Positions 15,544 to 29,388 of a stretch of DNA of 63,963 nt are shown in pieces; the stretch's first letter is position 1; each line of letters opens with the position of its first letter. The stretch comes from a virus. The notes under the pieces were generated by a model that was not told where the DNA came from, made no database searches, and was given only the letters and a program-made list of their open reading frames with translations. Location of the stretch: the IMG/VR virus record IMGVR_UViG_3300044940_000357, positions 1-63,963 of that record. One strand, 5' to 3'. A program made the position numbers and the translations under genes.

Positions 15544-16280
15544 ATTACAGATACATCTATCTTATCAGCGTCTACTATTGTAAATCGATCCCGATCTATG
15601 TGAATTAATTTTAATTCATCTACCTCATAACCGACTTTCGTTAATATATGTCGATATATAGATAATTGTATAGAGTATCGGGAATGGTTCGTATTAGGAA
15701 GATAATCAAAAGGAGGTCGCAATTTAAAATTGGTCTTTTTTTCTTTCCCTGTTTTTTTATCAATATAAGTATCTCTTAGTATCGGCTTTCCAGTTTTATA
15801 ATCAAGCAAAGCAAGACGATTGGTTTCAAGATTGTAAGCAAGTACATCACATGTACCCGACACTCTGAGATCTGGATCGTACATACGCAACTCGGAACAT
15901 ATAATCTTATATCGCCCAGCAAGATGTCTATACAACGATATCAATGTTGATCGATACTCTTTTATATCAATACCTTTTACTGGTAAATTAAGGCTCTTAT
16001 TTTCAAGATATTTGTGAACTAACGAACCTTTCTCGGTAGCTATTTTTGACTTTTTATCCCATTCTTTGATAACTTCTTCTTGAGTCATATTATACTCATC
16101 GGCCTTCTTTTTAGACCAGTAATCACGGTCAAAATTCTCATAGCGTTTTACTATACTAGTAGCAGATGTTAATTCTAGGTCGGGTTGAGTAGCTAAGTAA
16201 TATTTATGATTAACTTCATCAAATATAAGATCCTTAAATAACTCTTCTATCTCTGCGCGCAGTTTCTTTTTATTTATCAT
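15534..16280 (-). CDS. PD-(D/E)XK superfamily nuclease
   Basis: 248 residues. The Cas4/RecB-like nuclease signature is visible: GSLVHKYLE near the N-terminus (His of the motif), VSGTCDVLAY (Asp), ALLDYKTGK (D-x-K) and SIQLSIYRHIL (the QhxxY motif). Such single-domain exonucleases process DNA ends during replication or recombination in many crAss-like phages. It lies among the genes closest to the divergence point, not with the other replication genes. Its start overlaps the upstream gene by 11 bases. Confidence 0.85.
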   Translation of the reverse strand: MINKKKLRAEIEELFKDLIFDEVNHKYYLATQPDLELTSATSIVKRYENFDRDYWSKKKADEYNMTQEEVIKEWDKKSKIATEKGSLVHKYLENKSLNLPVKGIDIKEYRSTLISLYRHLAGRYKIICSELRMYDPDLRVSGTCDVLAYNLETNRLALLDYKTGKPILRDTYIDKKTGKEKKTNFKLRPPFDYLPNTNHSRYSIQLSIYRHILTKVGYEVDELKLIHIDRDRFTIVDADKIDVSVIWK

Positions 16281-16458
16281 ATGTTACAGGAATAACTTCT
16301 TCAATTGTATAATCGTCATAATCGATACCCAAATCTTCAAATTTTTTTATAGCTTGTTCTTTCCCCCAAGCTTCTATCAACAAAGTCTCTGTTATAAATC
16401 GTCCACGATCGTTAAAACGATAATACAGATAATAAAATATCTTATAAGTTTTCATCAT
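16270..16458 (-). CDS. small protein of unknown function
   Basis: 62 residues (61 if the second ATG is used). The pattern ITETLLIEAWGKEQAIKKFEDLG is alpha/beta, as in many phage small proteins. It overlaps its two neighbours. No function assigned. Confidence 0.6.
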   Translation of the reverse strand: MMKTYKIFYYLYYRFNDRGRFITETLLIEAWGKEQAIKKFEDLGIDYDDYTIEEVIPVTYDK

Positions 16459-16612
16459 TTCTTGTAAAAGAATAAAGTAAAAATATAATAGAAACCATTA
16501 ATAATGATAAATCAAGTATACTGACACTTAATCTCATTATACTATAAGTAGTATTTATCACTACAAGTAAAAATATAATAGCAGCTAACCAAAATAAATA
16601 TTTATTTTTCAT
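16442..16612 (-). CDS. small two-helix membrane protein
   Basis: 56 residues from ATG at 16612, with another in-frame ATG one codon earlier. Two hydrophobic segments are clear: LFWLAAIIFLLVVI near the N-terminus and LLMVSIIFLLYSF near the C-terminus. It fills the gap between two coupled genes and overlaps both, which supports it as a real gene. An inner-membrane protein is likely; a holin-like role is only a guess. Confidence 0.6.
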   Translation of the reverse strand: MKNKYLFWLAAIIFLLVVINTTYSIMRLSVSILDLSLLMVSIIFLLYSFTRNDENL

Positions 16613-16814
16613 CATCTTTATTTTTTAATCTTCCAAAACTAATATTGGGCAAAACTCTCATGTCTGTATGAGTCCATTGCCATATCTCGCCAGACTCTTG
16701 TATCACAGTATATAGAGTATCGGTCTCTGTTCCATACTCGGTTACTAACCATATCACACCTTCGCCCTTAGGTGTCAAAACATAAACCCTATTTTGAGGT
16801 TCAAATATTCTCAT
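16602..16814 (-). CDS. small protein of unknown function
   Basis: 70 residues, beta-rich (VYVLTPKGEGVIWLVTEYG), like a small SH3-type barrel. It overlaps the RepL stop as ATGA at its start and the membrane-protein gene at its end, so it is part of the repL-led operon. Confidence 0.62.
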   Translation of the reverse strand: MRIFEPQNRVYVLTPKGEGVIWLVTEYGTETDTLYTVIQESGEIWQWTHTDMRVLPNISFGRLKNKDDEK

Positions 16815-17266
16815 TGTATCTTATCTCTGTATTTCTTTATACGATTACCTTGAAAAAACATATCGGGATTTATCCAAAAAACATCTTTTATTACTGTTGG
16901 AGAAATAAATCCATATCGGATCAATTCATCTCTTGCTTTAGTGTAAGTGTTATAAGATAAATTTTGTTCTTTAAGATAGCGATCTTTATTAATATAAACC
17001 CAATCACAACCCTCATCTATTTCAAATATTAACCAAAGAAAAAGTCTTTGAGAACACGAGGATAGATCGTTTACAATCTTTCTACGTTCACTCGAAACAA
17101 ATATTTTAGTAAAACGCGTAGCTTCCAACTCTATAATCTCTTTTACTAAAACATCATCATCCATCACATAATTTTTTCCTTTTATTTTATTTACAGGAAT
17201 GGATAAAGAGTTAACAAAAGGATTTTTACCTAATAAAGATTGATCTATTGATTTATTCTTTTTCAT
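16811..17266 (-). CDS. RepL-type winged-helix replication initiator
   Basis: 151 residues. A winged helix spans about residues 72-135 (CSQRLFLWLIFEID, then NLSYNTYTKARDELIRYGFI), followed by FWINPDMFFQGNRI. That last pattern matches the conserved WINPxxFFxGxR region of the plasmid RepL family. RepL proteins bind their origin and start plasmid replication, and they also occur in crAss-like phages, where plasmid-like maintenance has been proposed. This is the first gene leftward of the divergence and faces a 480-bp non-coding region with tandem and inverted repeats. It could also act as a transcription regulator. Confidence 0.75.
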   Translation of the reverse strand: MKKNKSIDQSLLGKNPFVNSLSIPVNKIKGKNYVMDDDVLVKEIIELEATRFTKIFVSSERRKIVNDLSSCSQRLFLWLIFEIDEGCDWVYINKDRYLKEQNLSYNTYTKARDELIRYGFISPTVIKDVFWINPDMFFQGNRIKKYRDKIQ

Positions 17267-17271
17267 TTGTG

Positions 17272-17279
17272 CAAAGCTA
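17272..17279 (-). promoter_or_regulatory. candidate -7 element of the leftward promoter
   Basis: On the minus strand this reads TAGCTTTG, matching the Bacteroidota -7 consensus TAnnTTTG. It ends only 5 bases before the repL ATG, so the transcript would be nearly leaderless. I see no convincing -33 TTTG. Weak on its own. Confidence 0.3.
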
Positions 17280-17294
17280 ACACATATATGTATA

Positions 17295-17316
17295 TTATCA
17301 TATAGTTATCATATAG
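17295..17316. repeat. tandem 11-bp direct repeats upstream of repL
   Basis: TTATCATATAG occurs twice head to tail (17295-17305 and 17306-17316), followed by a partial third copy (TTATCAAAA). Short tandem repeats beside an initiator gene are typical of iterons or operators. Confidence 0.6.
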
Positions 17317-17387
17317 ATATTATCAAAATTTTGTGAGTTTTATAAAATACTATACATCTCACAAATGAGGGGTCACAAAAAATAGGG

Positions 17388-17403
17388 TCACAAAAAATTG
17401 TGA
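17388..17403. promoter_or_regulatory. inverted repeat TCACAA-aaaa-TTGTGA, copy 1
   Basis: A perfect 6-bp inverted repeat with a 4-base spacer. Two further TCACAA half-sites (17359 and 17373) and one TTGTGA (17331) lie just upstream. The same 16-bp site recurs at 17578. Suggests binding of a dimeric protein. Confidence 0.5.
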
Positions 17404-17577
17404 AATCGAAAAAGTCAAAAAATTGTTTAATCAGATATATGAGAGTAACAAAAAATGACAAAAAAAATTCAAAAAAGGACCGTCTTATAGCTTTAAGGGT
17501 ATACTCGAGTAGGTCAATTTTTGGTCAAAAAACGATTGATGAGCTATATAGAAGTAAACTTTTCTCTTTTTTTCTAC

Positions 17578-17593
17578 TCACAAAAAATTGTGA
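17578..17593. promoter_or_regulatory. inverted repeat TCACAA-aaaa-TTGTGA, copy 2
   Basis: Identical to the site at 17388-17403, 190 bp away, including the spacer. A further GTGAG half-site follows at about 17600. Confidence 0.5.
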
Positions 17594-17749
17594 GAAAAAT
17601 GTGAGATGGATTCTCTAATGTTGTTTAAAGCACATCAAACGAATTTTTTTATTTTTTTATTTTTTTTTTGTTTTTTGTTGAGGGAATATTTGGTCTGTAC
17701 CCCCATCCTGCCCCGCTTGGGTTTGCAACTAAACATTTAAAATTAAATT

Positions 17750-18034
17750 ATGAAAAGCTACGAGTTTCAAAGTGGAGCGGAGTTTGCGGGAGCAACTTTG
17801 CTCGGACGTATAGAAGTGGAGGTCGTTTCTTCTAATAAAGGTACGGGCCTTTCAAAAGGCAAATGGAAAAACACCATTTTGCCCGTAGAAGTAATTTTGA
17901 ATAACAAGGGGACTAAAACAGTTTCCGTAAGAGAAGGGTTCAATTCCAAGAGTAAGCTTGAAAACGGCTTGTACACCGTGGGGGTGTACGAAGCCAACAT
18001 AAATAACAAGCTTACCGCCTACCTGGCTTTATAG
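17750..18034 (+). CDS. first rightward early gene, unknown function
   Basis: 94 residues, beta-rich and basic (KSYEFQSGAEFAG at the start, then two Lys-rich strands). Not recognised. It resembles small plasmid or phage proteins in size only. The coding sequence already has the folding style of this segment: a 12-bp stem with one bulge at 17966-17995 inside the gene, and an 8-bp stem (18009-18016 with 18038-18045) that spans the stop codon. It follows a T-rich run and the divergent region. Confidence 0.7.
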   Translation: MKSYEFQSGAEFAGATLLGRIEVEVVSSNKGTGLSKGKWKNTILPVEVILNNKGTKTVSVREGFNSKSKLENGLYTVGVYEANINNKLTAYLAL

Positions 18035-18428
18035 TCGGGTAAGCTGTCGCCCCTTCGGGGGTAAGTGTGCCTCAATCATTAGCCACATGATGAGAGGCAC
18101 AACCATACACTCGCCACACGGTGTATGGTAAGTAGCGTGTGTGGGCATATTTTCATTGTCTTGGTTGAAAATATGCTTCCCCAGATATCTGGGAGTGGGT
18201 TTTTTAAAAACCCAAGACATCCACCCCTCATTGTCCGAGTGAGGGAGAGTGTGACCAAGTTGTTGTAACCATCCGACAACTTGGCACACCGTGGGTTATT
18301 TATAGGCAAATTGAAGACGCCTATATCTCGGAATGGGGGATGCCGAAAACCCGTATAAAAGAGTAGGCAAGGGATGTAACTCACGCCCTGCATGTCGCGA
18401 AAGGTGGGTAGTAAAAGATTGTATTACC
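18035..18428 (+). ncRNA. structured leader or non-coding RNA
   Basis: About 390 bases without a convincing gene, filled by consecutive inverted repeats. They include a UUCG tetraloop hairpin (18050-18061), a 7-bp stem (18067-18100), an 8-bp stem (18103-18128), an 11-bp stem (18145-18176) and a palindrome (18180-18193). A 14-bp stem with one bulge (18249-18289) and a 7-bp stem whose loop holds AAATTGAAGA (18301-18325) follow. It ends with the repeated GCCGAAAACCC element. Probably a structured 5' leader of the next gene. Confidence 0.55.
18332..18368 (+). repeat. GCCGAAAACCC...GAGTAGGC leader element, copy 1
   Basis: Contains GGGGGATGCCGAAAACCC, then after a few bases AAAAGAGTAGGC. A near-identical element lies at 18964-19002 and a shorter relative at 24367-24389. 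In each copy the terminal GCC and GGC can pair. Confidence 0.6.
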
Positions 18429-18848
18429 ATGTTGTTATATAAACAGCCCATAACCCGTGAGGAAATGGGCAAACTGGGCAAAATCCTTAGAGCGATTTTG
18501 CCTAAGGATACTAAGATTACTTTTAACGAAGAAAAAATCGACATTTTTGCGTCCTACATATCATACGAGGGTAATTCTATTACCCGCGATAAGGAAAAAA
18601 TTGTCATTTTCACGGTATCAAGGTTTGAAGGCGCCCTCCTATTGGAGAGGTTGCCCATTCAAGAAACGTTTTTCTTTAATGGGGAACGCTCAGAGCGTTA
18701 CCCCGACGAAGATCCGACGGTGTCGGATTTATTAAAAAATCATGTGGATTCAGACAGTATAGTAGCTTACGTACTCTACAGAGAGCACGTTTGGGAGGAC
18801 TACTGGTCAATAAACACATCAAAGGAAGCAGAGATTCTGCTTCCTTGA
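18429..18848 (+). CDS. unknown protein in the hairpin-rich segment
   Basis: About 139 residues from ATG at 18429 (MLLYKQPITREEMG). An open frame extends upstream to 18333, but that part is the repeated leader element and unlikely to be translated. No family recognised. The gene carries many stems, for example 18478-18501 (8 bp), 18681-18704 (10 bp with a bulge) and 18712-18728 (7 bp). An 18-bp interrupted stem at 18813-18854 covers the stop codon. Confidence 0.68.
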   Translation: MLLYKQPITREEMGKLGKILRAILPKDTKITFNEEKIDIFASYISYEGNSITRDKEKIVIFTVSRFEGALLLERLPIQETFFFNGERSERYPDEDPTVSDLLKNHVDSDSIVAYVLYREHVWEDYWSINTSKEAEILLP

Positions 18849-18854
18849 CGTGTT

Positions 18855-18949
18855 CCCCCCTACCTTGGGCAAGTAGGGGGGTATCGCAGCCTACCCTTGC
18901 CGTCGTCTAACGGGCAATCGCCGTCATTTAAAACGGCAAGGGTTTTTTT
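18855..18949 (+). terminator. stable hairpin followed by intrinsic terminator
   Basis: A 9-bp C/G-rich stem at 18855-18881 is followed by a 10-bp stem, 18894-18903 with 18933-18942 (CCCTTGCCGT/ACGGCAAGGG), and then a run of seven T. This is a textbook intrinsic terminator after the 139-residue gene. Confidence 0.75.
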
Positions 18950-18963
18950 AATGGGGGATGTTT

Positions 18964-19002
18964 AATGGGGGATGCCGAAAACCCAAAGTAAAAAGAGTAG
19001 GC
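18964..19002 (+). repeat. GCCGAAAACCC...GAGTAGGC leader element, copy 2
   Basis: Shares GGGGATGCCGAAAACCC and AAAAGAGTAGGC with 18332-18368. A partial tandem AATGGGGGATG precedes it at 18950. It ends 19 bases before the ATG of the next gene. Confidence 0.6.
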
Positions 19003-19021
19003 GTAAATTGAAAAAATAGAA

Positions 19022-19282
19022 ATGGAAACTAGAACCATAATATCGGAGGTTAACACAGCTCACCTCCACATGATCAAGGAGAACTTTGATCATGAGTGCC
19101 CGCTTCCTGAGGGCGGGTACGTGCTATATTCATTTATATCAAATATTGAAGCAATTGAAGCTATAATTCTAATTGTAAAGAAAGAAAAGCTCATAAAAAC
19201 AAGAGCTTTTCTTTTCACCGGGGAGATTCTCCAATTAGAGAATTTCCTTGCTAAGCATGGGATTGAAATATCCCTAGCATAG
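19022..19282 (+). CDS. unknown small protein
   Basis: 86 residues (METRTIISEVNTAHLHMIKEN), with a hydrophobic beta strand EAIILIVKK. Not recognised. Inside the gene are stems at 19045-19067 (6 bp), 19069-19094 (9 bp), 19096-19120 (8 bp with one G-U) and 19182-19213 (11 bp), nearly end to end. The leader contains AAATTGAAAAAATAG, a variant of the recurring loop motif. Confidence 0.68.
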   Translation: METRTIISEVNTAHLHMIKENFDHECPLPEGGYVLYSFISNIEAIEAIILIVKKEKLIKTRAFLFTGEILQLENFLAKHGIEISLA

Positions 19283-19813
19283 CGAGCCTCCCCTTTGTCT
19301 CCTTGCCGCCATTTAATGGGTAAAACGGCAAGGGGGGTTTAAAGATGTCCCTGTCAAGCAGAATTGAAGATGACAGGGCATCTTTATTTTTATCCCTCCA
19401 CCTTGAGCAAGTGGAGGTGGGTGTTTGCTCATGTCCCTCAATCGGACCGCAAATGTAACGTCGTTATTTGATGGTTACTCAAGCTGGTTCGATGAGGGAC
19501 ACTTATTTGACTAAGACGGGGTCAGATAAGTAAAAATTAAACCGTCTCTGCCGAAGGCTCGCGACGCGTTTTGCTCGCTGAGCATTGGCAGATTCCCCGA
19601 AAGGGGAAATTAGCGCCCCTTAAGTGGGGCTTTAGCTTGTCCGTACCATACCGGACTTAAACATAGTATGGTAAGCCTTTGTACTAGGCTTTGATTGAGG
19701 AGCTATGCTCCAAAAGAAGGTACAAAGACCGTCGTCTAGATATTTATCTAGGCAGAATGTTAGGACGGCGCGCACAGGGTTCTGGAAAGCTTCTTACCTG
19801 TGCAAAATAAAGT
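19283..19813 (+). ncRNA. structured spacer upstream of tRNA-Arg
   Basis: About 530 bases with no convincing gene. Besides the terminator at 19341 it holds a 16-bp stem with a bulge and a G-U (19432-19448 with 19486-19501) enclosing a smaller hairpin. A 10-bp stem (19502-19530), a GAAA-tetraloop hairpin (19593-19608) and a string of 5-7 bp stems continue to the tRNA. Likely a processed transcript or tRNA leader. Confidence 0.5.
19341..19392 (+). terminator. intrinsic terminator
   Basis: A 15-bp stem with one bulge (AAAGATG-T-CCCTGTCA pairing with TGACAGGGCATCTTT) is followed by TATTTTTAT. The loop contains AATTGAAGA, the motif that recurs in this segment. Confidence 0.7.
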
Positions 19814-19887
<74 letters not shown>

Positions 19888-19930
19888 CGATTAAAAAACC
19901 TAATCACAATTAAAAAAACAAAAAAACGTT

Positions 19931-20344
19931 ATGAACAAAAAGTCACTCATCTTTGTGATCGCCATGGTGGTGGTCACATTGTTTTTGGCCACCTTTGCTG
20001 TGGCCAAGCCCCGCCCAAAATGGGTGCGGGTAAGTCACTCAATTTTAACAAGCGACTTAGGTCGCATTGATCGCGACACTGTCGCTATCAAGTTAACCTT
20101 CATCCGTTTCGACGGAGAAGGTAATCCCGTTGTCGCAAGAAATCTTGGGCTCCTCACAATCGAGGTGGCTTTCACTGTGGATCGCAGCGAAGCGATCCGC
20201 ATTATTAACGGCGGAAATCTTTCCGCCAACGGGCATGTCCTCGCCCGTTTCTCAGAGGGGACAAGAATAATTCGCGATCCTAAGGGTCGCGAAGTCCGCC
20301 GCATGAGAGCTGCGGACCTCTGCAGAATTTTATATGCAGAGTAA
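19931..20344 (+). CDS. exported or membrane-anchored protein
   Basis: 137 residues. The N-terminus MNKKSLIFVIAMVVV...AVAKP is a signal peptide or membrane anchor. The rest is a small beta-rich domain. A weakly similar protein with the same layout is encoded at 29874 (both have DxDTV followed by a GxNPV segment), in AT-rich sequence. The last 170 bases of the gene are covered by five hairpins almost without gaps: 20179-20198, 20210-20227, 20228-20249, 20271-20293 and 20318-20341. Function unknown. Confidence 0.72.
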   Translation: MNKKSLIFVIAMVVVTLFLATFAVAKPRPKWVRVSHSILTSDLGRIDRDTVAIKLTFIRFDGEGNPVVARNLGLLTIEVAFTVDRSEAIRIINGGNLSANGHVLARFSEGTRIIRDPKGREVRRMRAADLCRILYAE

Positions 20345-20345
20345 A

Positions 20346-20378
20346 AAACAAGGCGGTTTCTTTGAAGCCGCCTTGTTT
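20346..20378 (+). terminator. 15-bp hairpin just after the stop codon
   Basis: AAACAAGGCGG-TTTC / GAA-GCCGCCTTGTTT forms a 15-bp stem with one G-U pair and a 3-base loop, starting two bases after the stop. Only a short T stretch follows, so it may be a terminator or an RNA-stabilising hairpin. Confidence 0.6.
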
Positions 20379-21342
20379 CCCCAGCTATGGGTAAAATAGC
20401 AATCGTTTTATTTTTTTAACATGTACTATCGTCCCCGGGTAGTACATCAGTAGTGGCACAAGGAGGCCGCAAGGGGTGAAGGCATATGACCTTCAATGTA
20501 TAATAAATCGTGGTATTGAGCTAGACCACGTTGAAATAGTTAGCTCACCTGTCCACAAACACGGAGGTGTGACAGGTTCATGGGAGAAAGAGGCCGTCAA
20601 TATTAAACGACGTGTCTCTAAAGAGAAAAGGGTTTCCGTGTTGCGACTGAATCTCATGTCGCACAAGTTAACGACTTGACCCGAGATATATATAGCTCTG
20701 TACGCTAACAATAACTACGTCAACAATAGATGTAGGGAGTGGTGTATATCTATATATGTACGATTTGAGACTGGACAACTCAAATCAATATGTACAATGT
20801 CCAATAGCCGTACGCCACAACGGTTATGATATCTTAAGATATGAGTCGATATTAAAAGACCTTATCTTAGATATAATTATTTTAGTCAAGGGCATGAGTC
20901 GGGGTTGACATCCCGATAAGGGTATGGAGTAAAGACCATACTTGAAAACGTCAACGTCCGATAATCAAATCAACAATAGATTTGAGGAGGACGTTAGGGC
21001 GAATTGAAGTCGCCGTCTATATTTCTATCCTGTACGGATAGTTGTCAAAGTCGACCATGGGACTGAGACGTAAAAACAGAAAGAAGCCTAAGTCGTGCGA
21101 TGCTTCGCATCGATATGGTGAGCGCTCATGGTTATAGTAGGAGACATCCGACAATGTCGTATGTCGTTATTACTACTGAATAAGTCCGAAAGGACTCTGT
21201 CGTCTATGTGCGTGGCTGTGCATAGACCTGATGAGGGGTTAACCCGAAACAGTATTGCCCGCGTAAGATAAGACTGCGTTAAGGTCTTGTGAGTGATGCG
21301 TGCCCACTCAGAACGGCATTAATTTTTTATCCAAAATTGAAG
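20379..21342 (+). ncRNA. nearly 1 kb of structured non-coding RNA
   Basis: No convincing gene; one weak GTG-start frame lies at 20476-20679. The stretch is a chain of hairpins, for example 20421-20447, 20508-20529 and 20757-20792 (13 bp, interrupted). Nested stems at about 20953-20995 and a 5-bp hairpin with loop ATTGAAG (20998-21014) follow, then a GAAA tetraloop (21183-21196) and a 7-bp stem at 21201-21226. Either a long structured leader of the AAA+ gene or a separate RNA. Confidence 0.5.
20476..20679 (+). CDS. possible small ORF with GTG start (doubtful)
   Basis: 67 codons starting GTG, about ten bases after an AGGAGG-like sequence. The product (KAYDLQCIINRGIELDHVE at the start) is hydrophilic and unrecognised. 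Bacteroidota rarely use Shine-Dalgarno sites, and the whole stretch is structured RNA, so this may be chance. Confidence 0.25.
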   Translation: MKAYDLQCIINRGIELDHVEIVSSPVHKHGGVTGSWEKEAVNIKRRVSKEKRVSVLRLNLMSHKLTT

Positions 21343-21349
21343 ATGGGTA
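21328..21349 (+). promoter_or_regulatory. start-codon hairpin with AATTGAAGA loop (AAA+ gene)
   Basis: TATCC (21328-21332) pairs with GGGTA (21345-21349), one G-U, around loop AAAATTGAAGAT. The loop and stem contain the ATG at 21343-21345. A second, outer pairing ATTAATTTT with AAAATTAAT is possible. Closely matched by the hairpin at 24396-24420. Confidence 0.5.
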
Positions 21350-22467
21350 GAAAATTAATTAACGCCCTAGAATGCGAAAAGTATATACAACGTAAGCTTT
21401 TCGCATTCAACGCCGGCAAGACGCTGGCTAGGGCGTGGAACGCGGGGGAAAACGTTCTTCTTACTGGACCAGGTGGTTACGGTAAGACGGATGGAGCATA
21501 CTCTTTCTTTGAGTACCTCAAGTCTCAGGAAGCTATTATGGATGAAAATCCGTACATATTAGCTTTTGGACAAGGGATGACTGAAGAAAGACTCTTCGCT
21601 GGATTGGATATTAAAAAATTCCAATCAGAAGGGGAGTTAGTTTACAACCTTAAAAAGGCTTTTGTAAACTACGAGTATGTAATCTTTGAAGAATTGTTCG
21701 ATGCCTTTCCAGGCGTCTTATTAATCCTCAAAGATGTACTCCAATCGAAGAGCGTACGGTTAGGCGACACCGTATTCCCCTTGCGAACTAAATTTATAGT
21801 CGCCTGCACCAACCGTAGCAATGAGGAAGTCGCTACGGATAGAAGTACATGGGCCCTCTTGGAACGCTTTGTATTCCAGAAAGAGGTAACATGGACTTCG
21901 TGGGAAAAGTCTGACTACCTCTCAGCTTTCGAGGCAGCCACAGGCCAGAAAGCTGATGCCGTCATGGAGGCTGTGGCACGTATCGCTGCTGCCAGCAGCA
22001 AAGGTGAGATGAAAATATCACCTCGCACTGCTGGTAAAGGCCTAAAAGCGGTAAAACAAAACGGTAACGACATTACCGTTTTGGAAGATATTCTCGGCTT
22101 CGATAAGAAGTCCGTAAGAGAAGTCTTCACTGCTATGGAAGGCATAGCAGCAGACAAGACACAACGTGACCACGTAGCTGCGGTGGTTGCGTTATGTAAG
22201 CAGACAGCAGCTACTTCTTCGAATTCCGCCATTAAATTGGCGGTTGCCGCTAAACGAGTTCACGTAGAACTCGAGAAACTTAGCGGAATTCAACGTCGTG
22301 ATGCGAACGTTGAATTGTTCGAAGAAAGCATCATTGTCATAGAGAATCTGAGGGAGTCTCTATGGCAAAGAGCCAAGTCCCTTATTAACAAGCCACCAGT
22401 TGGCAGCTTGGCAGAGTTTATACAAAACTCTAGCACAAGCTCATTCGACTGGAGCTTGTTGAGATAA
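21343..22467 (+). CDS. MoxR-like AAA+ ATPase, hairpin-rich copy
   Basis: About 374 residues from ATG at 21343 (MGRKLINALECEKY), chosen because it aligns with the start of the paralogue at 34041. Walker A is TGPGGYGKT (about residues 41-49), Walker B YVIFEELFD (113-120), sensor 1 ACTN (154-157), then LLERFVF. MoxR-type ATPases work with VWA proteins to remodel or insert cofactors into partner proteins; the VWA partner follows. The gene is full of stems: 21371-21407 (11 bp) inside 21362-21436 (9 bp), 22057-22083 (11 bp), 22247-22286 and 22287-22316 (10 bp). The 34041 copy lacks these. Confidence 0.88.
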   Translation: MGRKLINALECEKYIQRKLFAFNAGKTLARAWNAGENVLLTGPGGYGKTDGAYSFFEYLKSQEAIMDENPYILAFGQGMTEERLFAGLDIKKFQSEGELVYNLKKAFVNYEYVIFEELFDAFPGVLLILKDVLQSKSVRLGDTVFPLRTKFIVACTNRSNEEVATDRSTWALLERFVFQKEVTWTSWEKSDYLSAFEAATGQKADAVMEAVARIAAASSKGEMKISPRTAGKGLKAVKQNGNDITVLEDILGFDKKSVREVFTAMEGIAADKTQRDHVAAVVALCKQTAATSSNSAIKLAVAAKRVHVELEKLSGIQRRDANVELFEESIIVIENLRESLWQRAKSLINKPPVGSLAEFIQNSSTSSFDWSLLR

Positions 22468-22538
22468 TCGTTAACCCAATCTCTTGGGTTTGACTTGCAT
22501 ATAAGGTTAATCGTAAAAGCAAGGTAGTTATAATTTTA

Positions 22539-22568
22539 TGGGGTTATGAAAAAAAGAACCATACCCCA
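22539..22568 (+). promoter_or_regulatory. hairpin sequestering the VWA start codon
   Basis: TGGGG-T-TATG (22539-22548) pairs with CATACCCCA (22560-22568): 9 bp with one bulged T and an A-rich loop. The initiating ATG (22546-22548) lies inside the stem, so folding would block translation. Confidence 0.5.
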
Positions 22569-23775
22569 CCATCTGTACGTTGAGCCTACGCGGCGAGACG
22601 TACAAGAAAGATTTAAGGAGTTAGGTTTTGATAAAACCTACTCTTATGATCTCGTACGGGATATTGCTAATGCGATGTCTCACGTACAGAATGGTGGGAA
22701 AGTCACTGACGCAATGACCAACGTCAGTGATTGGGTTCTTCCTTCTGACTATAAGTCAGAGAGGGAATATCAAAGAGCACTCTCGTATCACGAGAATGTT
22801 CAAAGATTTATTTCTTCTCTTGACTTTGACAAGTTCAGTGGCAATACTCCGCTTGCAAAAGCGGCAAGTGTTGTTGCTGCACTGTCTAGTCAAGAAGGGG
22901 GACAAGGCAGTGAGGGTGATGGTCAACCCTTGCCAATCTTCCGAGGTTCGTCAGAATCTATGGAAGAAAAGGCTAAAAAGTTGGAAGAGGCAGTTGATCA
23001 AACTGTCGAGGCTAACAAAAGCCTTGCGAGGTACATCATCAATCCTGATGAGTCCTCCCCAGAGGTGGCTCTCGCGACCTTGAACAGCGAGAATCGGGAT
23101 CTCTTAGCCAAGTTAGCGCTACTTGGTGACAGAGGTAAGATACGTTCACAGCGCACTTCTCCCACAAACAAACTCGCTCAAATGAGTGAGTATTCACAGG
23201 TGGGTCGTGTGAACGGTATGAGCAATGTCCTTCTTCCCACTTTCGGGTATAAATTTGCGACCAAGCAATTGGTTGTAAGAGAACCCGAACAATCAACAAG
23301 ACAAACCCTTGTCTTATTGATTGATAACAGCGGCTCTATGGACGAGACCGACAAATTAAGTTGGGTCAAAGCCATAGTAGTTGACAGACTAGACGCTGTC
23401 AGTAGGGGGGAAGCTGAATTGTACATCGGTTGGTTTGAATGTTCTCTCGACGAAGAGAACATTGTTAAAATTGCCAACAAAAAAGAAGCCATAGCTTTTT
23501 TACAAGAAGGCTTCTTGGGTAATTTTAACGGAGGCAAAACCGATGTGCAACGGGCCGTTGAACAAGTTTGCGAGGGAATCAAACTTGGAAGGCTCGGTAA
23601 TTATTCCCTCAACGGAGTTAAACCCCAAATCGTTGTAATGAACGATGGGCAAGACTTCGTTGACAGCAATTATAAACCCAGTGTTGTGACTCACGGGTTT
23701 ATCTTAGGGCGAGACAATGACGGAATGAAGTCAATGATCGCCAATTGCGGAGGTCACTATGAAAGATTTTTATAA
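22546..23775 (+). CDS. VWA-domain protein, hairpin-rich copy
   Basis: 409 residues. The C-terminal von Willebrand A domain has the metal-binding site LLIDNSGSMDE (DxSxS at about 260-264), GNFNGGKTD (Thr) and VVMNDGQDF (Asp). The N-terminal half is helical with an Asp/Gly-rich linker near residues 115-130. It pairs with the MoxR-like ATPase just upstream, as in known MoxR-VWA systems. Its closest relative in the window is at 35194, which has the same order, LIDDSGSM and GNFNGGGT. Gene-wide stems include 22622-22640, 22703-22730, 23173-23190 (with a G-U) and 23572-23610. Confidence 0.88.
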   Translation: MKKRTIPHHLYVEPTRRDVQERFKELGFDKTYSYDLVRDIANAMSHVQNGGKVTDAMTNVSDWVLPSDYKSEREYQRALSYHENVQRFISSLDFDKFSGNTPLAKAASVVAALSSQEGGQGSEGDGQPLPIFRGSSESMEEKAKKLEEAVDQTVEANKSLARYIINPDESSPEVALATLNSENRDLLAKLALLGDRGKIRSQRTSPTNKLAQMSEYSQVGRVNGMSNVLLPTFGYKFATKQLVVREPEQSTRQTLVLLIDNSGSMDETDKLSWVKAIVVDRLDAVSRGEAELYIGWFECSLDEENIVKIANKKEAIAFLQEGFLGNFNGGKTDVQRAVEQVCEGIKLGRLGNYSLNGVKPQIVVMNDGQDFVDSNYKPSVVTHGFILGRDNDGMKSMIANCGGHYERFL

Positions 23776-23983
23776 ATCTTTCTTTTCCCTATGCTCTACT
23801 AATAGGGATGTAAAACGATAGTAGCTGGAAGAAAACTACCCTACCTCAGGGTTATGTGACTATAAGGGTTAATGGGTGCGCTACCATTAGAAAAGTCACG
23901 CATATAAAAATCCTGCCATTGCAGGTTGAAACACAAAACCTTACCCAGTTTTGTGTGTATATAACTCATGGGTAATAAAGGAT
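23776..23983 (+). other. structured spacer between VWA and next gene
   Basis: Contains a 9-bp palindrome-like stem across the VWA stop (23760-23781), CCCTAT/ATAGGG, a GTGACT/AGTCAC stem with a nested hairpin, CCTGC-CATT-GCAGG, and the pseudoknot at 23931. No gene seen. Confidence 0.45.
23931..23975 (+). promoter_or_regulatory. candidate H-type pseudoknot before a start codon
   Basis: ACACAAAAC (23931-23939) pairs with GTTTTGTGT (23948-23956). The loop TTACCCA (23941-23947) is complementary to TGGGTAA (23969-23975), which lies eight bases before the ATG at 23984. The two pairings are topologically compatible as a pseudoknot and would occlude the translation start. Confidence 0.45.
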
Positions 23984-24229
23984 ATGGATAACTTTTTTCT
24001 TGAGTTGTTTATAGCAACTCAACAAGAAAGAATTCAATCCGAGGGATTGTTTTCTATCCTTTGCCGAATTGAAGAAGACAAGGATATGAAGAAAATCCCT
24101 TTCCACTCTCAAAAAGAGATGGAAGATTTCCTCTGGTTAAACAGAGGGAATTATCTATTCATCTCTTTGGAAGAGGCTGGGCTATTAATGTCCACCTCTC
24201 CGTTTGAGAACGGACTTGGATTGAATTGA
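23984..24229 (+). CDS. small protein following the AAA+/VWA pair
   Basis: About 81 residues from ATG at 23984 (MDNFFLELFIATQQE), preceded by AAAGG. It may correspond to the gene at 36551 that follows the other VWA copy: both have a Ser-Lys/Gln-rich turn and then an acidic helix (PFHSQKEMEDFLW versus IYFSSKDDFDVYI). A hairpin at 24055-24086 inside the gene has stem TATCCTT/AAGGATA and AATTGAAGA in its loop. Function unknown. Confidence 0.6.
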   Translation: MDNFFLELFIATQQERIQSEGLFSILCRIEEDKDMKKIPFHSQKEMEDFLWLNRGNYLFISLEEAGLLMSTSPFENGLGLN

Positions 24230-24413
24230 TTGGGGACCACCTGCACTAATCATCGGTGGGATATAAATAGAGGATTTTTTCTAACCATTCCGTTTTGTAA
24301 TATTACAAATAAAGGTTGAATCTGCGACAGGCATAGGGATATGTGCGAGTAATAGCAGAAGAGGAAGCCGAAAAGCTAAGTGAGTAGGCATTAATTATCC
24401 AAAAAATTGAAGA
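24230..24413 (+). other. structured spacer and leader
   Basis: Holds CCACC/GGTGG and GCATA/TGTGC stems and the palindrome TTGTAATATTACAA, followed by the third leader element and the start-codon hairpin of the next gene. No gene seen. Confidence 0.4.
24367..24389 (+). repeat. GCCGAAAA...GAGTAGGC leader element, copy 3
   Basis: GCCGAAAAGC and GAGTAGGC match the elements at 18332 and 18964; the centre differs. It ends 24 bases before the ATG at 24414. Confidence 0.5.
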
Positions 24414-24420
24414 ATGGATA
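24396..24420 (+). promoter_or_regulatory. start-codon hairpin with AATTGAAGA loop
   Basis: TATCC (24396-24400) pairs with GGATA (24416-24420); the loop is A-rich followed by TTGAAGAAT and contains the AT of the start codon, whose G is paired. TTAAT/ATTAA (24391-24395 with 24423-24427) extends it after a 2-base bulge. Upstream GCATTAATT and the loop are shared with 21319-21349. Confidence 0.5.
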
Positions 24421-24731
24421 TGATTAAGTCTTTATTTCCTCAGGTAGCCAAGTCTACCTTTGGAAAAAAAATGTTTAATCGCATAGCTCCCATTGTGGAG
24501 AAGCTGTGCGATGAAACATCGATGATCGCGATGCCCTCAATCGCAATGTTCCTGAGTTTCCATCCCGGAGCTTCTGCTCCGCAGCAGATGGTGTTTAACC
24601 ACCTTGCAGAAGTCGCACTGCAAGGCAACTGGAGGGTATTTGTTGCGACATATGGAGAACTTATTTCTCCTCTTGACCCGTTGGCTGTGTTGGGTCAGGA
24701 AGGAAGAAAGCAGTTCTTCCAGCCCATGTGA
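24414..24731 (+). CDS. unknown protein of the hairpin-rich segment
   Basis: 105 residues (MDMIKSLFPQVAKSTF), helical, with a hydrophobic centre (MPSIAMFLSFHPGASAP). Not recognised. Its stop overlaps the next GTG start (ATGTGA). Stems inside include 24480-24510 (9 bp with one G-U) and CGGAGC-TTCT-GCTCCG, and a CTTGCAG/CTGCAAG stem follows. Confidence 0.65.
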   Translation: MDMIKSLFPQVAKSTFGKKMFNRIAPIVEKLCDETSMIAMPSIAMFLSFHPGASAPQQMVFNHLAEVALQGNWRVFVATYGELISPLDPLAVLGQEGRKQFFQPM

Positions 24732-25078
24732 AACTCTACGTCCTTAACTCTGCGGTAATGCCAGAAGATGGTTATTATCGCAGAGTTAAGATAAGTAGAG
24801 AGAAGGCTTCCGAGATACTCAATACAGCCACAGAAATTGTATCTTCTGTTGGGTATCCGGAAGTTTGTCAAATAATATATGAAATATCAGGAGTTGTTGT
24901 TCCTCTTGATATTGAAAAGCGAGTAACAACATTTGCTGAAGATGAGTGTACTATATTAGTATGTAAACTTGTCTTCAGGGAAAAAGCAGAACGAAAAGGA
25001 GTTAATCGTCATACCGACATTAACGAATATGAGTTCTGCTTAGTTCATTATAAAAAAAATAACCCTTTTATCAAATAA
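24728..25078 (+). CDS. DUF1874 / AcrIII-1-like protein with altered active site
   Basis: 116 residues from a GTG overlapping the preceding stop. The pattern LYVLNSAV, YYRRVKIS, VSSVGYPEV, GVVVPLD and a final YEFCLV follows the DUF1874 (STIV B116 / AcrIII-1) family. Characterised members are ring nucleases that cleave cyclic tetra-adenylate and so block type III CRISPR signalling. The family's catalytic His lies in an IGH motif; here the position is Tyr (VGY, residue 43), so it may bind without cleaving or have another role. The gene opens with a 12-bp stem (CTTAACTCTGCG with its complement), and a 15-bp interrupted stem (24809-24866) follows. Confidence 0.62.
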   Translation: MKLYVLNSAVMPEDGYYRRVKISREKASEILNTATEIVSSVGYPEVCQIIYEISGVVVPLDIEKRVTTFAEDECTILVCKLVFREKAERKGVNRHTDINEYEFCLVHYKKNNPFIK

Positions 25079-25100
25079 ATAATAAAAGGGTTATTTTTTA
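25053..25100 (+). terminator. intrinsic terminator closing the hairpin-rich segment
   Basis: An A-rich stretch plus AACCCTTTTA pairs with TAAAAGGGTT plus T-run, up to 17 bp, overlapping the stop of the DUF1874 gene and ending in TTATTTTTTA. After this point the dense folding style stops. Confidence 0.75.
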
Positions 25101-25134
25101 ATTCATTCAAATCATAATCATTTATCATATTCAT

Positions 25135-25329
25135 ATGGAATTATATCCCGTAGTAGAATGCTTAACAAAAGAAGGAGCGTCATTTATTGTTTCTTTCTTT
25201 TGTGAAAAAGGTTTCGACTTCTACTTTGTATTTACAGGTAATAAGAAACCTTATCTTGTAGTTACAAACAAAGAAGGTCTAAAAGCTTTTGAGCAATGGA
25301 ATCATTCATTAGCAACAATTGTTCATTAG
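25135..25329 (+). CDS. small protein of unknown function
   Basis: 64 residues (MELYPVVECLTKEGASF), beta-rich with an aromatic FDFYFVF strand. Not recognised. Its 3' end runs into the first TTCATTAGCA repeats. The sequence is AT-rich without the dense hairpins found upstream. Confidence 0.55.
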   Translation: MELYPVVECLTKEGASFIVSFFCEKGFDFYFVFTGNKKPYLVVTNKEGLKAFEQWNHSLATIVH

Positions 25330-25392
25330 CAGGTTTCATTAGCAACTTATTCACTTTTCATTAGCAATTTTCATTAACATTTTTCATTAGCA
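25305..25392 (+). repeat. TTCATTAGCA short direct repeats
   Basis: TTCATTAGCA starts at 25305, 25322, 25335, 25357 and 25383, with a variant (TTCATTAACA) at 25370. Spacings are 17, 13, 22, 13 and 13 bases. The array ends 3 bases before the ATG at 25396. Could be a protein-binding array or a slippage product; the unit is not palindromic. Confidence 0.7.
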
Positions 25393-25395
25393 ATT

Positions 25396-25608
25396 ATGTA
25401 TCAAGTCACAAAAAATATAAACGGAGTCTATGCTGAGGCTACGTTTAAAACAAGAGAAGAGGCGTTGCGCCAAGCCACACGTTGGTTCGATTCCATGAAC
25501 ACTGATATTTCAGATTTATGCGGATCGTTCATTAGCCGTATTGTTAGCGGTAAGAATATAACTTATAGATTTCAAAAAGGATCATTAACAATAAGACATG
25601 AAAAATGA
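25396..25608 (+). CDS. small protein of unknown function
   Basis: 70 residues (MYQVTKNINGVYAEATFK). The pattern of a beta strand, then TREEALRQATRWF, resembles small phage proteins with a beta-alpha layout. It overlaps the next gene by 11 bases. Confidence 0.6.
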   Translation: MYQVTKNINGVYAEATFKTREEALRQATRWFDSMNTDISDLCGSFISRIVSGKNITYRFQKGSLTIRHEK

Positions 25609-25828
25609 AATTTATGGGTCTTTTTCGTTAATGACATTGACGGAAGAGGGAAAGTTGATTATAAATTTTCTATCAGACAATAACGAAAAGTTTATTGTTG
25701 AAATAGAATCTTTAATAAAAGAAGATGGTAGCGGAAGAAAATTTTTAATTAATCATAAAAGTGTAAACTCTATTAGCGGCTATGTTGACTTTGCTACTAA
25801 TAAAGGTTACATAAAAATTAAAAATTAA
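25598..25828 (+). CDS. small protein of unknown function
   Basis: 76 residues (MKNEIYGSFSLMTLTEEG), beta-rich. Not recognised. Overlaps the gene before it, so the pair is likely co-transcribed. Confidence 0.58.
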   Translation: MKNEIYGSFSLMTLTEEGKLIINFLSDNNEKFIVEIESLIKEDGSGRKFLINHKSVNSISGYVDFATNKGYIKIKN

Positions 25829-25833
25829 ATTTT

Positions 25834-25841
25834 TACTTTTG
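25834..25841 (+). promoter_or_regulatory. candidate -7 element before the tRNA cluster
   Basis: TACTTTTG matches the Bacteroidota TAnnTTTG consensus 33 bases before the first tRNA-like element. I see no clear -33 box. Confidence 0.3.
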
Positions 25842-25873
25842 TTGTTGTATTTTATAACAGCAAAGGTTTATTT

Positions 25874-25948
25874 GAGAACTCTTAACTCAATAGGTTAGAG
25901 TAACTGACTTATAAAGAGTTACAAGTTCAAGTTTTGTAGAGCTCACCA
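25874..25948 (+). tRNA. degenerate tRNA-like element with encoded CCA
   Basis: A D-arm (ACTC-AATAGGTTA-GAGT), a T-arm (ACAAG-TTCAAGT-TTTGT, one G-U), and an acceptor GAGAACT opposite AGAGCTC (5 of 7 pairs), then A and CCA. The anticodon arm has only three outer pairs around CTTATAA, which would give UAU (Ile). The variable region is almost absent. Possibly a decayed tRNA or a tRNA mimic. Confidence 0.45.
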
Positions 25949-25962
25949 TCAAGAATCAAATT

Positions 25963-26103
25963 AGAGGTGGCGCTGGATGCGCCTTGGATGCTGACAGGCG
26001 CGCGACTGTGCAGCATTGGTACTGGCAAGAAGCTGAACGACGGTTCAGTAGACGCTAGCAAAGGGCAGCTCCCTTGAGGCCGGTTCGATTCCGGCCACCT
26101 CTA
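25963..26103 (+). ncRNA. tRNA-like element with four-hairpin insertion
   Basis: The acceptor AGAGGTG pairs perfectly with CACCTCT, and the T-arm GCCGG-TTCGATT-CCGGC is canonical. About 109 bases lie between the 5' acceptor strand and the T-arm instead of about 42. They can form GGCGC/GCGCC, a 9-bp bulged hairpin around GCGCGCGA, CTGAAC-GACG-GTTCAG and AAGGG-CAGCT-CCCTT. No standard D- or anticodon arm is visible. It could be a tRNA with an insertion or a dedicated tRNA-like RNA. Confidence 0.5.
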
Positions 26104-26117
26104 CTTAAACAAACACA

Positions 26118-26191
26118 GGGTCCATAGCTCAGCCGGTTAGAGCATCTGACTCATAATCAGGGGGTCGCAGGTTCGAGCCCTGCTGGGCCCA
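26118..26191 (+). tRNA. tRNA with CAU anticodon (Met or Ile2)
   Basis: A full cloverleaf: GGGTCCA pairs with TGGGCCC, anticodon loop CTCATAA, T-arm GCAGG-TTCGAGC-CCTGC, discriminator A, no encoded CCA. The CAT anticodon fits elongator Met or, if the C is modified, Ile for AUA, an abundant codon here. Confidence 0.92.
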
Positions 26192-26232
26192 CAATCATTC
26201 ATTCACAAAAACCGCGACTGAGGCATCAGCAA

Positions 26233-26478
26233 ATGGATGGAAGTTCCTTTACAATTATGTATATGATAACGGTAGAAGTTTATGATTGTGAAAAAGGCAC
26301 TAATCGCTATGCGATAAAAGCTGCCAACTTCGAAGAAGCTGTTGAAAGATATGAAGATATCAAATCACGCATAGCTACAAACTGGACTCGCCATCCAGCA
26401 ATCACCGAAGAAATTAAACACCTCGATTGTACATACGATTCTTTTAATGAAGGTTGTATAATCGTTTCTCGTGTTTAA
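26233..26478 (+). CDS. small protein of unknown function
   Basis: 81 residues if the first ATG is used; MYMITVEVYDCEKG (26257) is an alternative start. Alpha/beta pattern with an acidic helix NFEEAVERYED. A CATTCATTCAC leader motif lies at 26193-26206, upstream. Confidence 0.58.
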   Translation: MDGSSFTIMYMITVEVYDCEKGTNRYAIKAANFEEAVERYEDIKSRIATNWTRHPAITEEIKHLDCTYDSFNEGCIIVSRV

Positions 26479-26485
26479 AGATATT

Positions 26486-26589
26486 ACCATCTATCGTTTA
26501 AGTAAGACGATTTGACAATCGCTTATAACAAAAATTGAAGATTATAAGCAATTGTTAAATAAATACAGGTTCGTATCCTGTTAGATGGT
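26486..26589 (+). ncRNA. tRNA-shaped element with long arm instead of anticodon arm
   Basis: ACCATCTA pairs with TAGATGGT (8 bp), a D-like arm is TCGT/ACGA, and the T-arm is ACAGG-TTCGTAT-CCTGT. In place of an anticodon arm there is a stem of about 11 bp (CAAT-C-GCTTATA with TATAAGC-A-ATTG). Its 15-base loop is ACAAAAATTGAAGAT, carrying the AATTGAAGA motif of the upstream segment. Confidence 0.5.
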
Positions 26590-26594
26590 CAATT

Positions 26595-26685
26595 AATCAC
26601 CTGAGTTTAAGAGATTCACCCTAAGGTAACTGACGTTAAACTTTTTGTCAGGAGAATAAGGTTATGACATAAGTCATAGGTGATT
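26595..26685 (+). ncRNA. cruciform tRNA-shaped element
   Basis: AATCACCT pairs with AGGTGATT (8 bp). Inside are CTGAC/GTCAG and ATGAC-ATAA-GTCAT. There is no canonical T-loop, so it is less tRNA-like than its neighbours. It fills the gap before the gene at 26709. Confidence 0.35.
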
Positions 26686-26708
26686 TAAGATTTTAAACTA
26701 TTTATCGC

Positions 26709-26930
26709 ATGAAAGTTTACGTTCACAGGTACCAGTTTGAAGGAGTATTAGTCGAGTTAATATTGCCTCATAACAATCTTATTGAAGTTGGTGACTTGAT
26801 TTCAATTGAAGAAATTGAAATTGAACCAATAAGAATAGAGCACGCAATCTTAGATGCGGTTGTCGTATATTTTTCTTATAGAGGCAAAGAAAGAAGTGTA
26901 ATCGTTGACAAATCAAATCTTGAAAAGTAA
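26709..26930 (+). CDS. small protein of unknown function
   Basis: 73 residues (MKVYVHRYQFEGVLVEL), beta-rich with an acidic EEIEIEPIRIE strand. Its stop overlaps the next ATG as TAATG, so the two are coupled. Not recognised. Confidence 0.6.
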   Translation: MKVYVHRYQFEGVLVELILPHNNLIEVGDLISIEEIEIEPIRIEHAILDAVVVYFSYRGKERSVIVDKSNLEK

Positions 26931-27181
26931 TGGAAGAAATAATCTTGGCGTTGTTAGACACTTGTCTAATCAGAGAACGCGACCCACGACAATTTCCAAT
27001 ATCAGAAGACACTATGTATCAATATAATATGCCTGAGCAATTATGCGATACTATTGTATCTATTGGTAAATATGTTGAACCGCAAACAGAAGCAGATCGC
27101 TATCGCGAAGCTGCAATTGGTAAAACATATATCGTTGACATTTATCAATTATACAATACAATCATTTCTCATGGAATTTAA
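26930..27181 (+). CDS. small acidic protein of unknown function
   Basis: 83 residues (MEEIILALLDTCLIRE), helical N-terminus. Coupled to both neighbours by overlaps. Not recognised. Confidence 0.58.
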   Translation: MEEIILALLDTCLIRERDPRQFPISEDTMYQYNMPEQLCDTIVSIGKYVEPQTEADRYREAAIGKTYIVDIYQLYNTIISHGI

Positions 27182-27578: not shown

Positions 27579-27606
27579 TCATTCATTCACCTTAAATTTA
27601 AAAACC

Positions 27607-28206: not shown

Positions 28207-28210
28207 TATC

Positions 28211-28240
28211 AGTACGCCTCTTGAACAGAGGCGTACTTTA
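28211..28240 (+). terminator. intrinsic terminator
   Basis: AGTACGCCTC pairs with GAGGCGTACT (10 bp, loop TTGAACA), followed by TTAAA. Placed four bases after the stop codon. Confidence 0.65.
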
Positions 28241-28259
28241 AATCAGTCAAAAAAAAAAA

Positions 28260-29380: not shown

Positions 29381-29388
29381 ATATCACT

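What the first reader, a model, noticed from the sequence alone, without database searches (positions are those of the whole stretch)
17760..25100. A 7.3-kb segment saturated with inverted repeats in the plus-sense RNA, through genes and spacers alike
Between about 17.76 and 25.1 kb, stems of 5-18 bp with short loops follow one another almost without gaps; I located several dozen by eye. Many lie inside open reading frames. In the 137-residue gene, five hairpins cover 20179-20341. The AAA+ gene has 11-bp (21371-21407 and 22057-22083) and 10-bp (22287-22316) stems. The DUF1874 gene opens with a 12-bp stem. Others cross stop codons (18813-18854, 23760-23781). Loops include UUCG (18050-18061) and GAAA (19593-19608, 21183-21196). 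Most imperfect pairs I noted are G-U in the plus sense (for example 20278/20286, 20357/20367, 19445/19489, 23176/23187, 24484/24506); the one A-C I noted is 18818/18849. This suggests selection on the transcript rather than on DNA palindromes. Flanking genes do not look like this, and the segment is richer in G+C. I know of no dsDNA phage region described with coding RNA folded this densely.
Basis: partly seen in the sequence, partly recalled or inferred. Interest (0 to 1): 0.92.

Follow-up and report, generated by a model that had tools for sequence, protein, structure and literature searches.

The report
Phage genes folded like RNA viruses
A 7.3-kb block of genes in a DNA phage has its silent codon positions chosen so that the messenger RNA folds into back-to-back hairpins, more densely than the RNA phages MS2 and Qbeta, which suggests that the phage shields or shapes these messages in a way known so far only from RNA viruses.

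Summary
In 17750-25100, perfect 7-bp-or-longer stems number 77 against 19 expected. Excess folding (MFED) is 40%, against 6-7% in most of the rest of the window, 29% in MS2 and Qbeta, and 4% in T7. Synonymous-codon shuffles give z down to -17. A paralogous MoxR/vWA gene pair in the same phage is not structured, so the proteins do not impose the folding. A sister genome (105 kb; Crassvirales muzzle protein) carries the same segment and no other like it.

Selection acts on plus-sense RNA. GNRA/UNCG tetraloops are 5-fold enriched on the sense strand only. Where the two genomes have diverged (66-79% identity), both versions fold strongly, and more than same-protein nulls on the sense strand. In two of these tracts they share only 0-8% of base pairs.

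Best guess at function: shielding of mRNA from RNA-targeting defence or decay. This is inferred, not shown.

The parts
17750..25100 (+). hairpin-saturated, G+C-richer transcription block: first genes of the rightward module, sense strand = folded strand
   Evidence: MFED 39.8% vs 6-7% in most of the rest of the window
17750..18034 (+). 94-aa ORF; sister version 66% identical in DNA, both folded, 0% of confident pairs shared
18035..18325 (+). non-coding run of hairpins (UUCG loop at 18050-18061; stems of 8-11 bp), 95% identical in sister
18301..18325 (+). hairpin with AATTGAAG loop; one of a family with the same loop and different stems (also 19349-19378, 20999-21014, 21318-21359, 24055-24086, 24395-24419)
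   Evidence: 7 AATTGAAG on + vs 0.26 expected, 0 on -
18333..18369 (+). Rfam DUF805b cis-regulatory RNA, copy 1 (46.4 bits)
18429..18848 (+). 139-aa ORF, absent from the sister genome
18965..19003 (+). Rfam DUF805b, copy 2 (43.7 bits), just before the 86-aa ORF
19022..19282 (+). 86-aa ORF; 34% identical to a DUF805b-led gene in another phage (L109:8863-9204)
19814..19888 (+). tRNA-Arg (TCT)
19931..20344 (+). 137-aa ORF; folding z -6 to -11 under synonymous shuffles; sister 75% identical, 59% of pairs shared, 5 double and 7 single compensated pairs
20345..21342 (+). about 1 kb without a convincing gene, hairpins throughout; 97% identical in sister from 20409 on
21343..22467 (+). MoxR-type AAA+ ATPase gene (PF20030/PF07728), synonymous-shuffle z -17 (+)
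21451..21759 (+). mosaic tract inside the AAA+ gene: 74% identical to sister, both versions folded, 8% of pairs shared
22546..23775 (+). vWA-domain gene, synonymous-shuffle z -9.8
24358..24390 (+). third DUF805b copy (32.1 bits, just under the gathering score of 35.6), 23 nt before the 105-aa ORF
24414..24731 (+). 105-aa ORF
24728..25078 (+). STIV_B116-like (DUF1874, PF08960) gene; begins with a 12-bp stem
25054..25099 (+). 18-bp stem followed by T's: likely terminator at the right edge of the segment
34041..36567 (+). internal control: paralogous MoxR/vWA gene pair, not structured beyond other genes of the phage

Best explanation
The segment is a block of phage mRNA whose overall degree of secondary structure, in the sense strand, is kept high by selection over coding and non-coding parts alike, largely without regard to which bases pair (shown in silico). 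[quoted passage not shown] The most likely purpose (inferred) is generic shielding. With some three quarters of the bases predicted paired in a chain of short hairpins, there is little single-stranded RNA for RNA-guided or single-strand-specific host factors to grip, such as type III and type VI CRISPR effectors, toxin RNases or decay RNases. The message stays translatable because the 10 nt before start codons are more open and because hairpins of this kind are melted by ribosomes. The block lies first in the rightward module, so it is probably expressed at the start of infection, when phage RNA is scarce and most exposed (inferred from position).
For: Saturation far above chance in DNA stems, dinucleotide-shuffle folding and codon-preserving folding. 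Not imposed by the proteins: the paralogous AAA+/vWA pair at 34-36.6 kb is ordinary. Folding gain over synonymous shuffles -8.4 kcal/mol per 100 nt, against -5.9 MS2, -6.7 Qbeta, -1.3 rest of window, -0.5 T7. MFED 39.8% (sister 33.8%), MS2 29.5%, Qbeta 28.6%, T7 4.3%; SARS-CoV-2 about 15% and highest vertebrate RNA virus 23.4% in PMC7642675. RNA on the sense strand: tetraloops, sense-strand maintenance in divergent tracts. Pairing-agnostic: 0% and 8% shared pairs while both versions are folded. PMC7642675 describes exactly this turnover for GORS. Bases in stems diverge less than unpaired bases, 5.1% vs 8.9%. Pairing dips to 0.48 in the 10 nt before start codons against 0.77 for the region. Shielding is biochemically plausible: target RNA structure cut type III Cmr sensitivity by up to two orders of magnitude (PMC8682760), and GORS transcripts escape RNA sensing in vertebrate cells (PMC3950689).
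Against: No RNA was measured; all structure is predicted. Only two genomes, one lineage; the independent evolutionary evidence rests on about 1.3 kb of mosaic tracts. The remaining genes of the phage are not armoured, so a general defence motive must explain why only this block is. The host and its defences are unknown. The STIV_B116-like protein might have pointed to type III CRISPR, but at the position of the His in AFV3-109's 'IGHQ' it has Tyr ('VGYP'); that this His is catalytic in the ring nuclease is from memory. Some specific elements are conserved (AATTGAAG hairpins, DUF805b, part of the 137-aa gene), so not everything is pairing-agnostic.
Confidence: 0.45

Rival explanations
1. Folding of the nascent transcript keeps it from re-annealing to its template. 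Crass-like phages carry a virion RNA polymerase for their first genes; if that enzyme (or ssDNA transcription during entry) is prone to RNA:DNA hybrids, dense co-transcriptional hairpins would prevent them.
For: The segment is the start of the rightward module, beginning at the divergence point and ending at a strong stem plus T's. Sense-strand maintenance, coding and non-coding alike, and no need for specific pairs all fit. Virion RNAPs transcribing first genes: PMC10770324, which also cites the phi14:2 enzyme.
Against: [quoted passage not shown] No RNAP was recognised among the sister's giant ORFs by motif, Pfam or PDB search.
Confidence: 0.2
2. The RNA is an object in itself: it is condensed, packaged in the virion or assembled into a particle, with repeated hairpins (loop AATTGAAG) as protein-binding sites, as coat-binding hairpins are in RNA phages.
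For: Structure above that of packaged RNA phage genomes. A family of hairpins with one loop and different stems, sense strand only: 7 AATTGAAG vs 0.26 expected.
Against: Genes are under ordinary protein constraint (82 synonymous vs 18 amino-acid-changing codons in AAA1) and start codons are partly open, so it is at least also mRNA. The AATTGAAG loops may be translation signals, as some lie at start codons.
Confidence: 0.1
3. A set of discrete, conserved regulatory RNAs (leaders, terminators, ncRNAs) lying close together, each with its own function.
For: Three DUF805b leaders, tRNA, terminator-like hairpins 20 found vs 8 expected in 17.0-26.6 kb, the conserved non-coding kilobase 20409-21340, conserved and compensated pairs in the 137-aa gene.
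Against: Folding runs through every gene body, with pairs replaced rather than kept in divergent tracts; DUF805b-led genes elsewhere are not generally structured (40 vs 100 control genes, p = 0.19).
Confidence: 0.15
4. DNA-level cause: selection for cruciforms or ssDNA hairpins, or a mutational process (template switching at quasi-palindromes) that makes inverted repeats.
For: Most stems are perfect Watson-Crick and both strands fold.
Against: Tetraloop enrichment is sense-strand only; evolutionary maintenance is much stronger on the sense strand in one direction and somewhat stronger in the other; proteins are intact and changes mainly synonymous; RNA phages show the same two-strand symmetry.
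Confidence: 0.07

Closest known systems
[quoted passage not shown] PMC7642675, PMC3950689)
   Same: Excess folding spread over coding sequence, consecutive stem-loops, level of folding kept while individual pairs turn over, stems diverging less than unpaired sites
   Different: Here in the mRNA of one 7.3-kb block of a dsDNA phage, not an RNA genome; MFED 40% against 15-23% for the most structured vertebrate RNA viruses in that study
Genomes of ssRNA phages (MS2, Qbeta; Leviviricetes)
   Same: Dense local hairpins through genes, both strands folding, similar or lower folding gain
   Different: No replicase or other RNA-virus gene here; DNA genome; the genes are a MoxR AAA+ ATPase, a vWA protein and small phage proteins
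Rfam DUF805b cis-regulatory RNA (RF02914)
   Same: Two copies above and one just below the gathering score, at leader positions
   Different: Explains about 110 nt of 7.3 kb; elsewhere DUF805b does not come with structured genes
mRNA structure near start codons in dsDNA viruses (PMC3072339)
   Same: Comparable codon-preserving test; reduced structure near starts
   Different: That survey of 650 dsDNA viruses found values zero or slightly negative inside genes; here they are extreme

Membership tests
GORS (genome-scale ordered RNA structure) | folding energy well below dinucleotide-preserving shuffles over long stretches of coding RNA | tested here: met
   MFED 39.8% over 21 fragments of 350 nt; z -3.14
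GORS (genome-scale ordered RNA structure) | excess remains under codon-preserving controls | tested here: met
GORS (genome-scale ordered RNA structure) | level of folding conserved, individual pairings not | tested here: met
   0%, 8%, 59% and 63% of pairs shared in tracts of 66-79% identity, all folded
GORS (genome-scale ordered RNA structure) | substitutions rarer at paired sites | tested here: met
   5.1% vs 8.9% divergence, stems >=6 bp
GORS (genome-scale ordered RNA structure) | property of the genome of a positive-strand RNA virus | tested here: not met
   dsDNA crass-like phage: crAss_MUZ, portal and terminase hits; one segment of a 105-kb sister genome. So it works like GORS but is not a member as defined
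ssRNA phage (Leviviricetes) derived sequence | RNA replicase, coat or maturation gene | tested here: not met
   PHROGs and Pfam scans of ten segment proteins show none
DUF805b RNA (RF02914) | covariance-model score above gathering threshold | tested here: met
   46.4 and 43.7 bits vs 35.6; third copy 32.1
Crassvirales | crass-type muzzle, portal and terminase proteins | tested here: met
   PF25731 in sister; phrog_6547, phrog_6681 and TerL hits to crass-like phages at 26-30% identity
AcrIII-1 ring nuclease (within DUF1874/STIV_B116) | family profile match | tested here: met
   PF08960 32.1 bits vs cut-off 26
AcrIII-1 ring nuclease (within DUF1874/STIV_B116) | catalytic His aligned with the 'GHQ' of AFV3-109 | tested here: inconclusive
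   Tyr at that place in the pairwise alignment; that this His is catalytic is from memory, not checked

The most novel reading that the evidence does not exclude
A dsDNA phage keeps the mRNA of one block of genes in a GORS-like armoured state through synonymous-site selection, as a passive counter-defence against RNA-targeting bacterial immunity. It would be the first structure-based RNA shield known in a DNA phage.
Probability: 0.35. Interest if true: 0.9.

Novelty: new variant of a known kind. Interest (0 to 1): 0.8.

Why it matters
Large-scale ordered RNA structure is known from RNA viruses, where its purpose is still debated. A DNA phage that has it in one block, next to an unstructured paralogous gene pair in the same genome, is a natural controlled experiment: related proteins, same host, folded against unfolded mRNA. 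If the structure shields RNA, it would be a counter-defence strategy that no protein-based search could find and that could be scanned for in any phage genome by codon-preserving folding tests.

Tried and rejected
G-U vs A-C mismatches within one genome: composition explains the ratio. Position-specific covariation as the main signal: retained pairs are no more frequent than in the same-codon null except weakly in the 105-aa gene (P = 0.037). Relatives by AAA+ and vWA proteins in viral and genome collections: only the sister genome, its second gene pair and a weak Rhizobium vWA hit; none in annotated phages. More distant relatives of a neighbouring gene (L004-L009) are not hairpin-rich. MT835470, cr118_1 and the part of phi14:2 scanned lack a comparable contiguous segment; cr118_1 has a mild rise at 62-69 kb, MFED 17%. 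DUF805b as a marker of structured genes: 58 viral contigs found, no general association (p = 0.19), though one phage (G002) has three DUF805b-led genes with moderate folding. Virion RNAP in the sister's giant ORFs: not recognised. Anti-phage-defence families for the segment's proteins: none in PADLOC. Literature search found no report of such a region in a dsDNA phage within the held library, which is not the whole literature.
Full report
What was checked. The window is a 63,963-base virus record with Crassvirales-type portal, terminase and DNA polymerase B genes. A sister genome of 105,641 bases (G001) is 95-97% identical over long stretches, carries a Crassvirales muzzle protein, and contains the same segment with several mosaic, more divergent tracts. 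These are the only two genomes of this lineage that I could find.

Perfect stems of 7 bp or more are four times, and of 8 bp or more nine times, as frequent as in dinucleotide shuffles. Mean folding z in 100-nt windows is -3.14 on the sense strand, against -0.63 elsewhere. With protein and codon usage held fixed, the genes of the segment keep z of -2.5 to -17 on the sense strand. The folding gain over synonymous shuffles is -8.4 kcal/mol per 100 nt on average. The same test gives -5.9 for MS2, -6.7 for Qbeta, -2.1 for phiX174, -0.5 for T7 and -1.3 for 23 other genes of this window. With the MFED measure used for RNA viruses the segment scores 39.8%, the sister 33.8%, MS2 29.5%, Qbeta 28.6%, T7 4.3%, most of the rest of the window 6-7% and 25.1-34 kb 14%. 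A published survey with a comparable codon-preserving test on 650 dsDNA viruses found values near zero or slightly negative inside genes (PMC3072339).

The proteins do not impose it. The phage has a second MoxR AAA+/vWA gene pair at 34041-36567, 41% and 30% identical in protein to the pair in the segment, and this pair folds like other genes of the phage. Composition does not explain it either, because all nulls keep composition.

It is RNA, and the sense strand. Both strands fold in prediction, but so do both strands of MS2 and Qbeta, so strand symmetry does not tell DNA from RNA. Three tests do. First, hairpins closed by four Watson-Crick pairs carry GNRA or UNCG tetraloops 9 times on the sense strand against 1.8 expected, and 2 times against 1.3 on the other; the sister shows 9 against 1.75 and 1 against 1.27. 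The two genomes share much of this sequence, so these are not fully independent. Second, replacing the sister's changed codons by other synonymous codons at the same places gives less stable sense-strand RNA than is found (Stouffer z -5.3), whereas the antisense strand hardly cares (-1.0); in the reverse direction the values are -5.4 and -3.9. Third, stem pairs of the window that differ in the sister become G-U rather than A-C (32 vs 7, p = 0.0035 against an offset control), but the reverse comparison is not significant.

The level of folding is kept, the pairs are not. In the 94-aa gene (66% nucleotide identity) the two genomes share none of their confident base pairs; in the tract 21451-21759 of the AAA+ gene (74%) they share 8% although 66% and 78% of bases are paired; in the 137-aa gene (75%) they share 59%, with five double and seven single compensated pairs; in the 86-aa gene (79%) 63%. 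All versions are folded beyond synonymous shuffles. At low divergence, stems diverge less than unpaired sites, 5.1% against 8.9%. This combination is how GORS is described: distributed throughout the genome, agnostic about which bases pair, and costly to mutate (PMC7642675).

Anatomy. The segment starts at the divergence of the two gene modules and ends at an 18-bp stem followed by T's. About 4 kb is coding and about 3 kb is not. Specific elements are embedded: three DUF805b leader RNAs, a tRNA-Arg, and a family of hairpins that share the loop AATTGAAG but have different stems (seven motif copies on the sense strand against 0.26 expected, none on the other). Mean predicted pairing falls to 0.48 in the 10 nt before start codons against 0.77 over the segment, and AAA1 has 82 synonymous against 18 amino-acid-changing codon differences, so the genes are probably translated. 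In the sister genome no other contiguous stretch is similar. Isolated single windows elsewhere in crass-like genomes reach high MFED, but no block does.

How it works. Shown in silico: transcript-wide, sense-strand, pairing-agnostic selection for folding. Inferred: that it shields early mRNA. Target RNA structure is known to lower the sensitivity of a type III CRISPR complex by up to two orders of magnitude (PMC8682760), and structured transcripts escape RNA sensors in vertebrate cells (PMC3950689). Structure-agnostic shielding against guide RNAs or single-strand RNases needs only a high level of pairing, which fits. Suppression of RNA:DNA hybrids by a virion RNA polymerase at the first genes fits nearly as well and cannot be told apart by sequence alone. 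RNA packaging and discrete regulatory RNAs fit less well, and DNA-level causes poorly.

Limits. Nothing was measured. Two genomes carry the evolutionary argument, and its independent part is about 1.3 kb. The nulls are approximations. Expression timing and host are inferred, not known. The STIV_B116-like protein is tempting next to type III CRISPR, but it has Tyr where AFV3-109 has the His of its 'GHQ', so I give it no weight.

Noticed in passing
window 34041-36567 and 21343-23775: The phage carries two paralogous MoxR AAA+/vWA gene pairs (41% and 30% protein identity), with no relatives among 50,697 annotated phage records.
   Followed up: partly
window 18309, 19362, 21002, 21335, 24067, 24405, 26533: Hairpins with a shared loop AATTGAAG(A) and different stems, sense strand only, some at start codons: perhaps a translation or protein-binding signal of this phage.
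   Followed up: partly
window 18333-18369, 18965-19003, 24358-24390; loci L050-L107: DUF805b elements; in 58 viral contigs with the core motif the next start codon often lies 22-25 nt downstream, so it is probably a leader element of phage genes.
   Followed up: partly
window 18369-18964 vs L002 around 6010-6045: The 139-aa gene lying between two DUF805b repeats is missing from the sister genome: gain or loss of a leader-plus-gene cassette by recombination between the repeats is likely.
   Followed up: no
L109:9630-10724 and 10810-11206 (IMGVR_UViG_3300044994_000233): A phage contig has a 364-aa TnpB-like protein (NF040570, E 6e-10, below cut-off) followed by a CRISPR-like array of repeats of about 37 nt (GTAGTAATGCAGCTTTTTGATAAAGTACCATTGCGAC) spaced about 72 nt apart: a possible phage-borne miniature type V-like system.
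   Followed up: partly
window 25963-26106: Sub-threshold tmRNA match (20.4 bits, gathering 47) among tRNA genes, which also include a weak tRNA at 25876-25945.
   Followed up: no
window 31277-31921 and 25100-34000: Milder excess folding downstream of the segment (gene 31277: synonymous-shuffle z -5.2; MFED 14% over 25.1-34 kb).
   Followed up: partly
cr118_1 (NC_055872) 62-69 kb: Mildly raised hairpin density and MFED (17%) in and around the divergence point of the two gene modules.
   Followed up: partly
G001 16001-25126 and 10344-15989: Giant ORFs of 3041 and 1881 aa without any Pfam match (no PDB match for the first, no PHROGs match for the second); candidates for virion cargo or RNA polymerase of this lineage.
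   Followed up: partly
window 20378-20409 vs L002: The sister has about 290 bp more non-coding sequence here.
   Followed up: no
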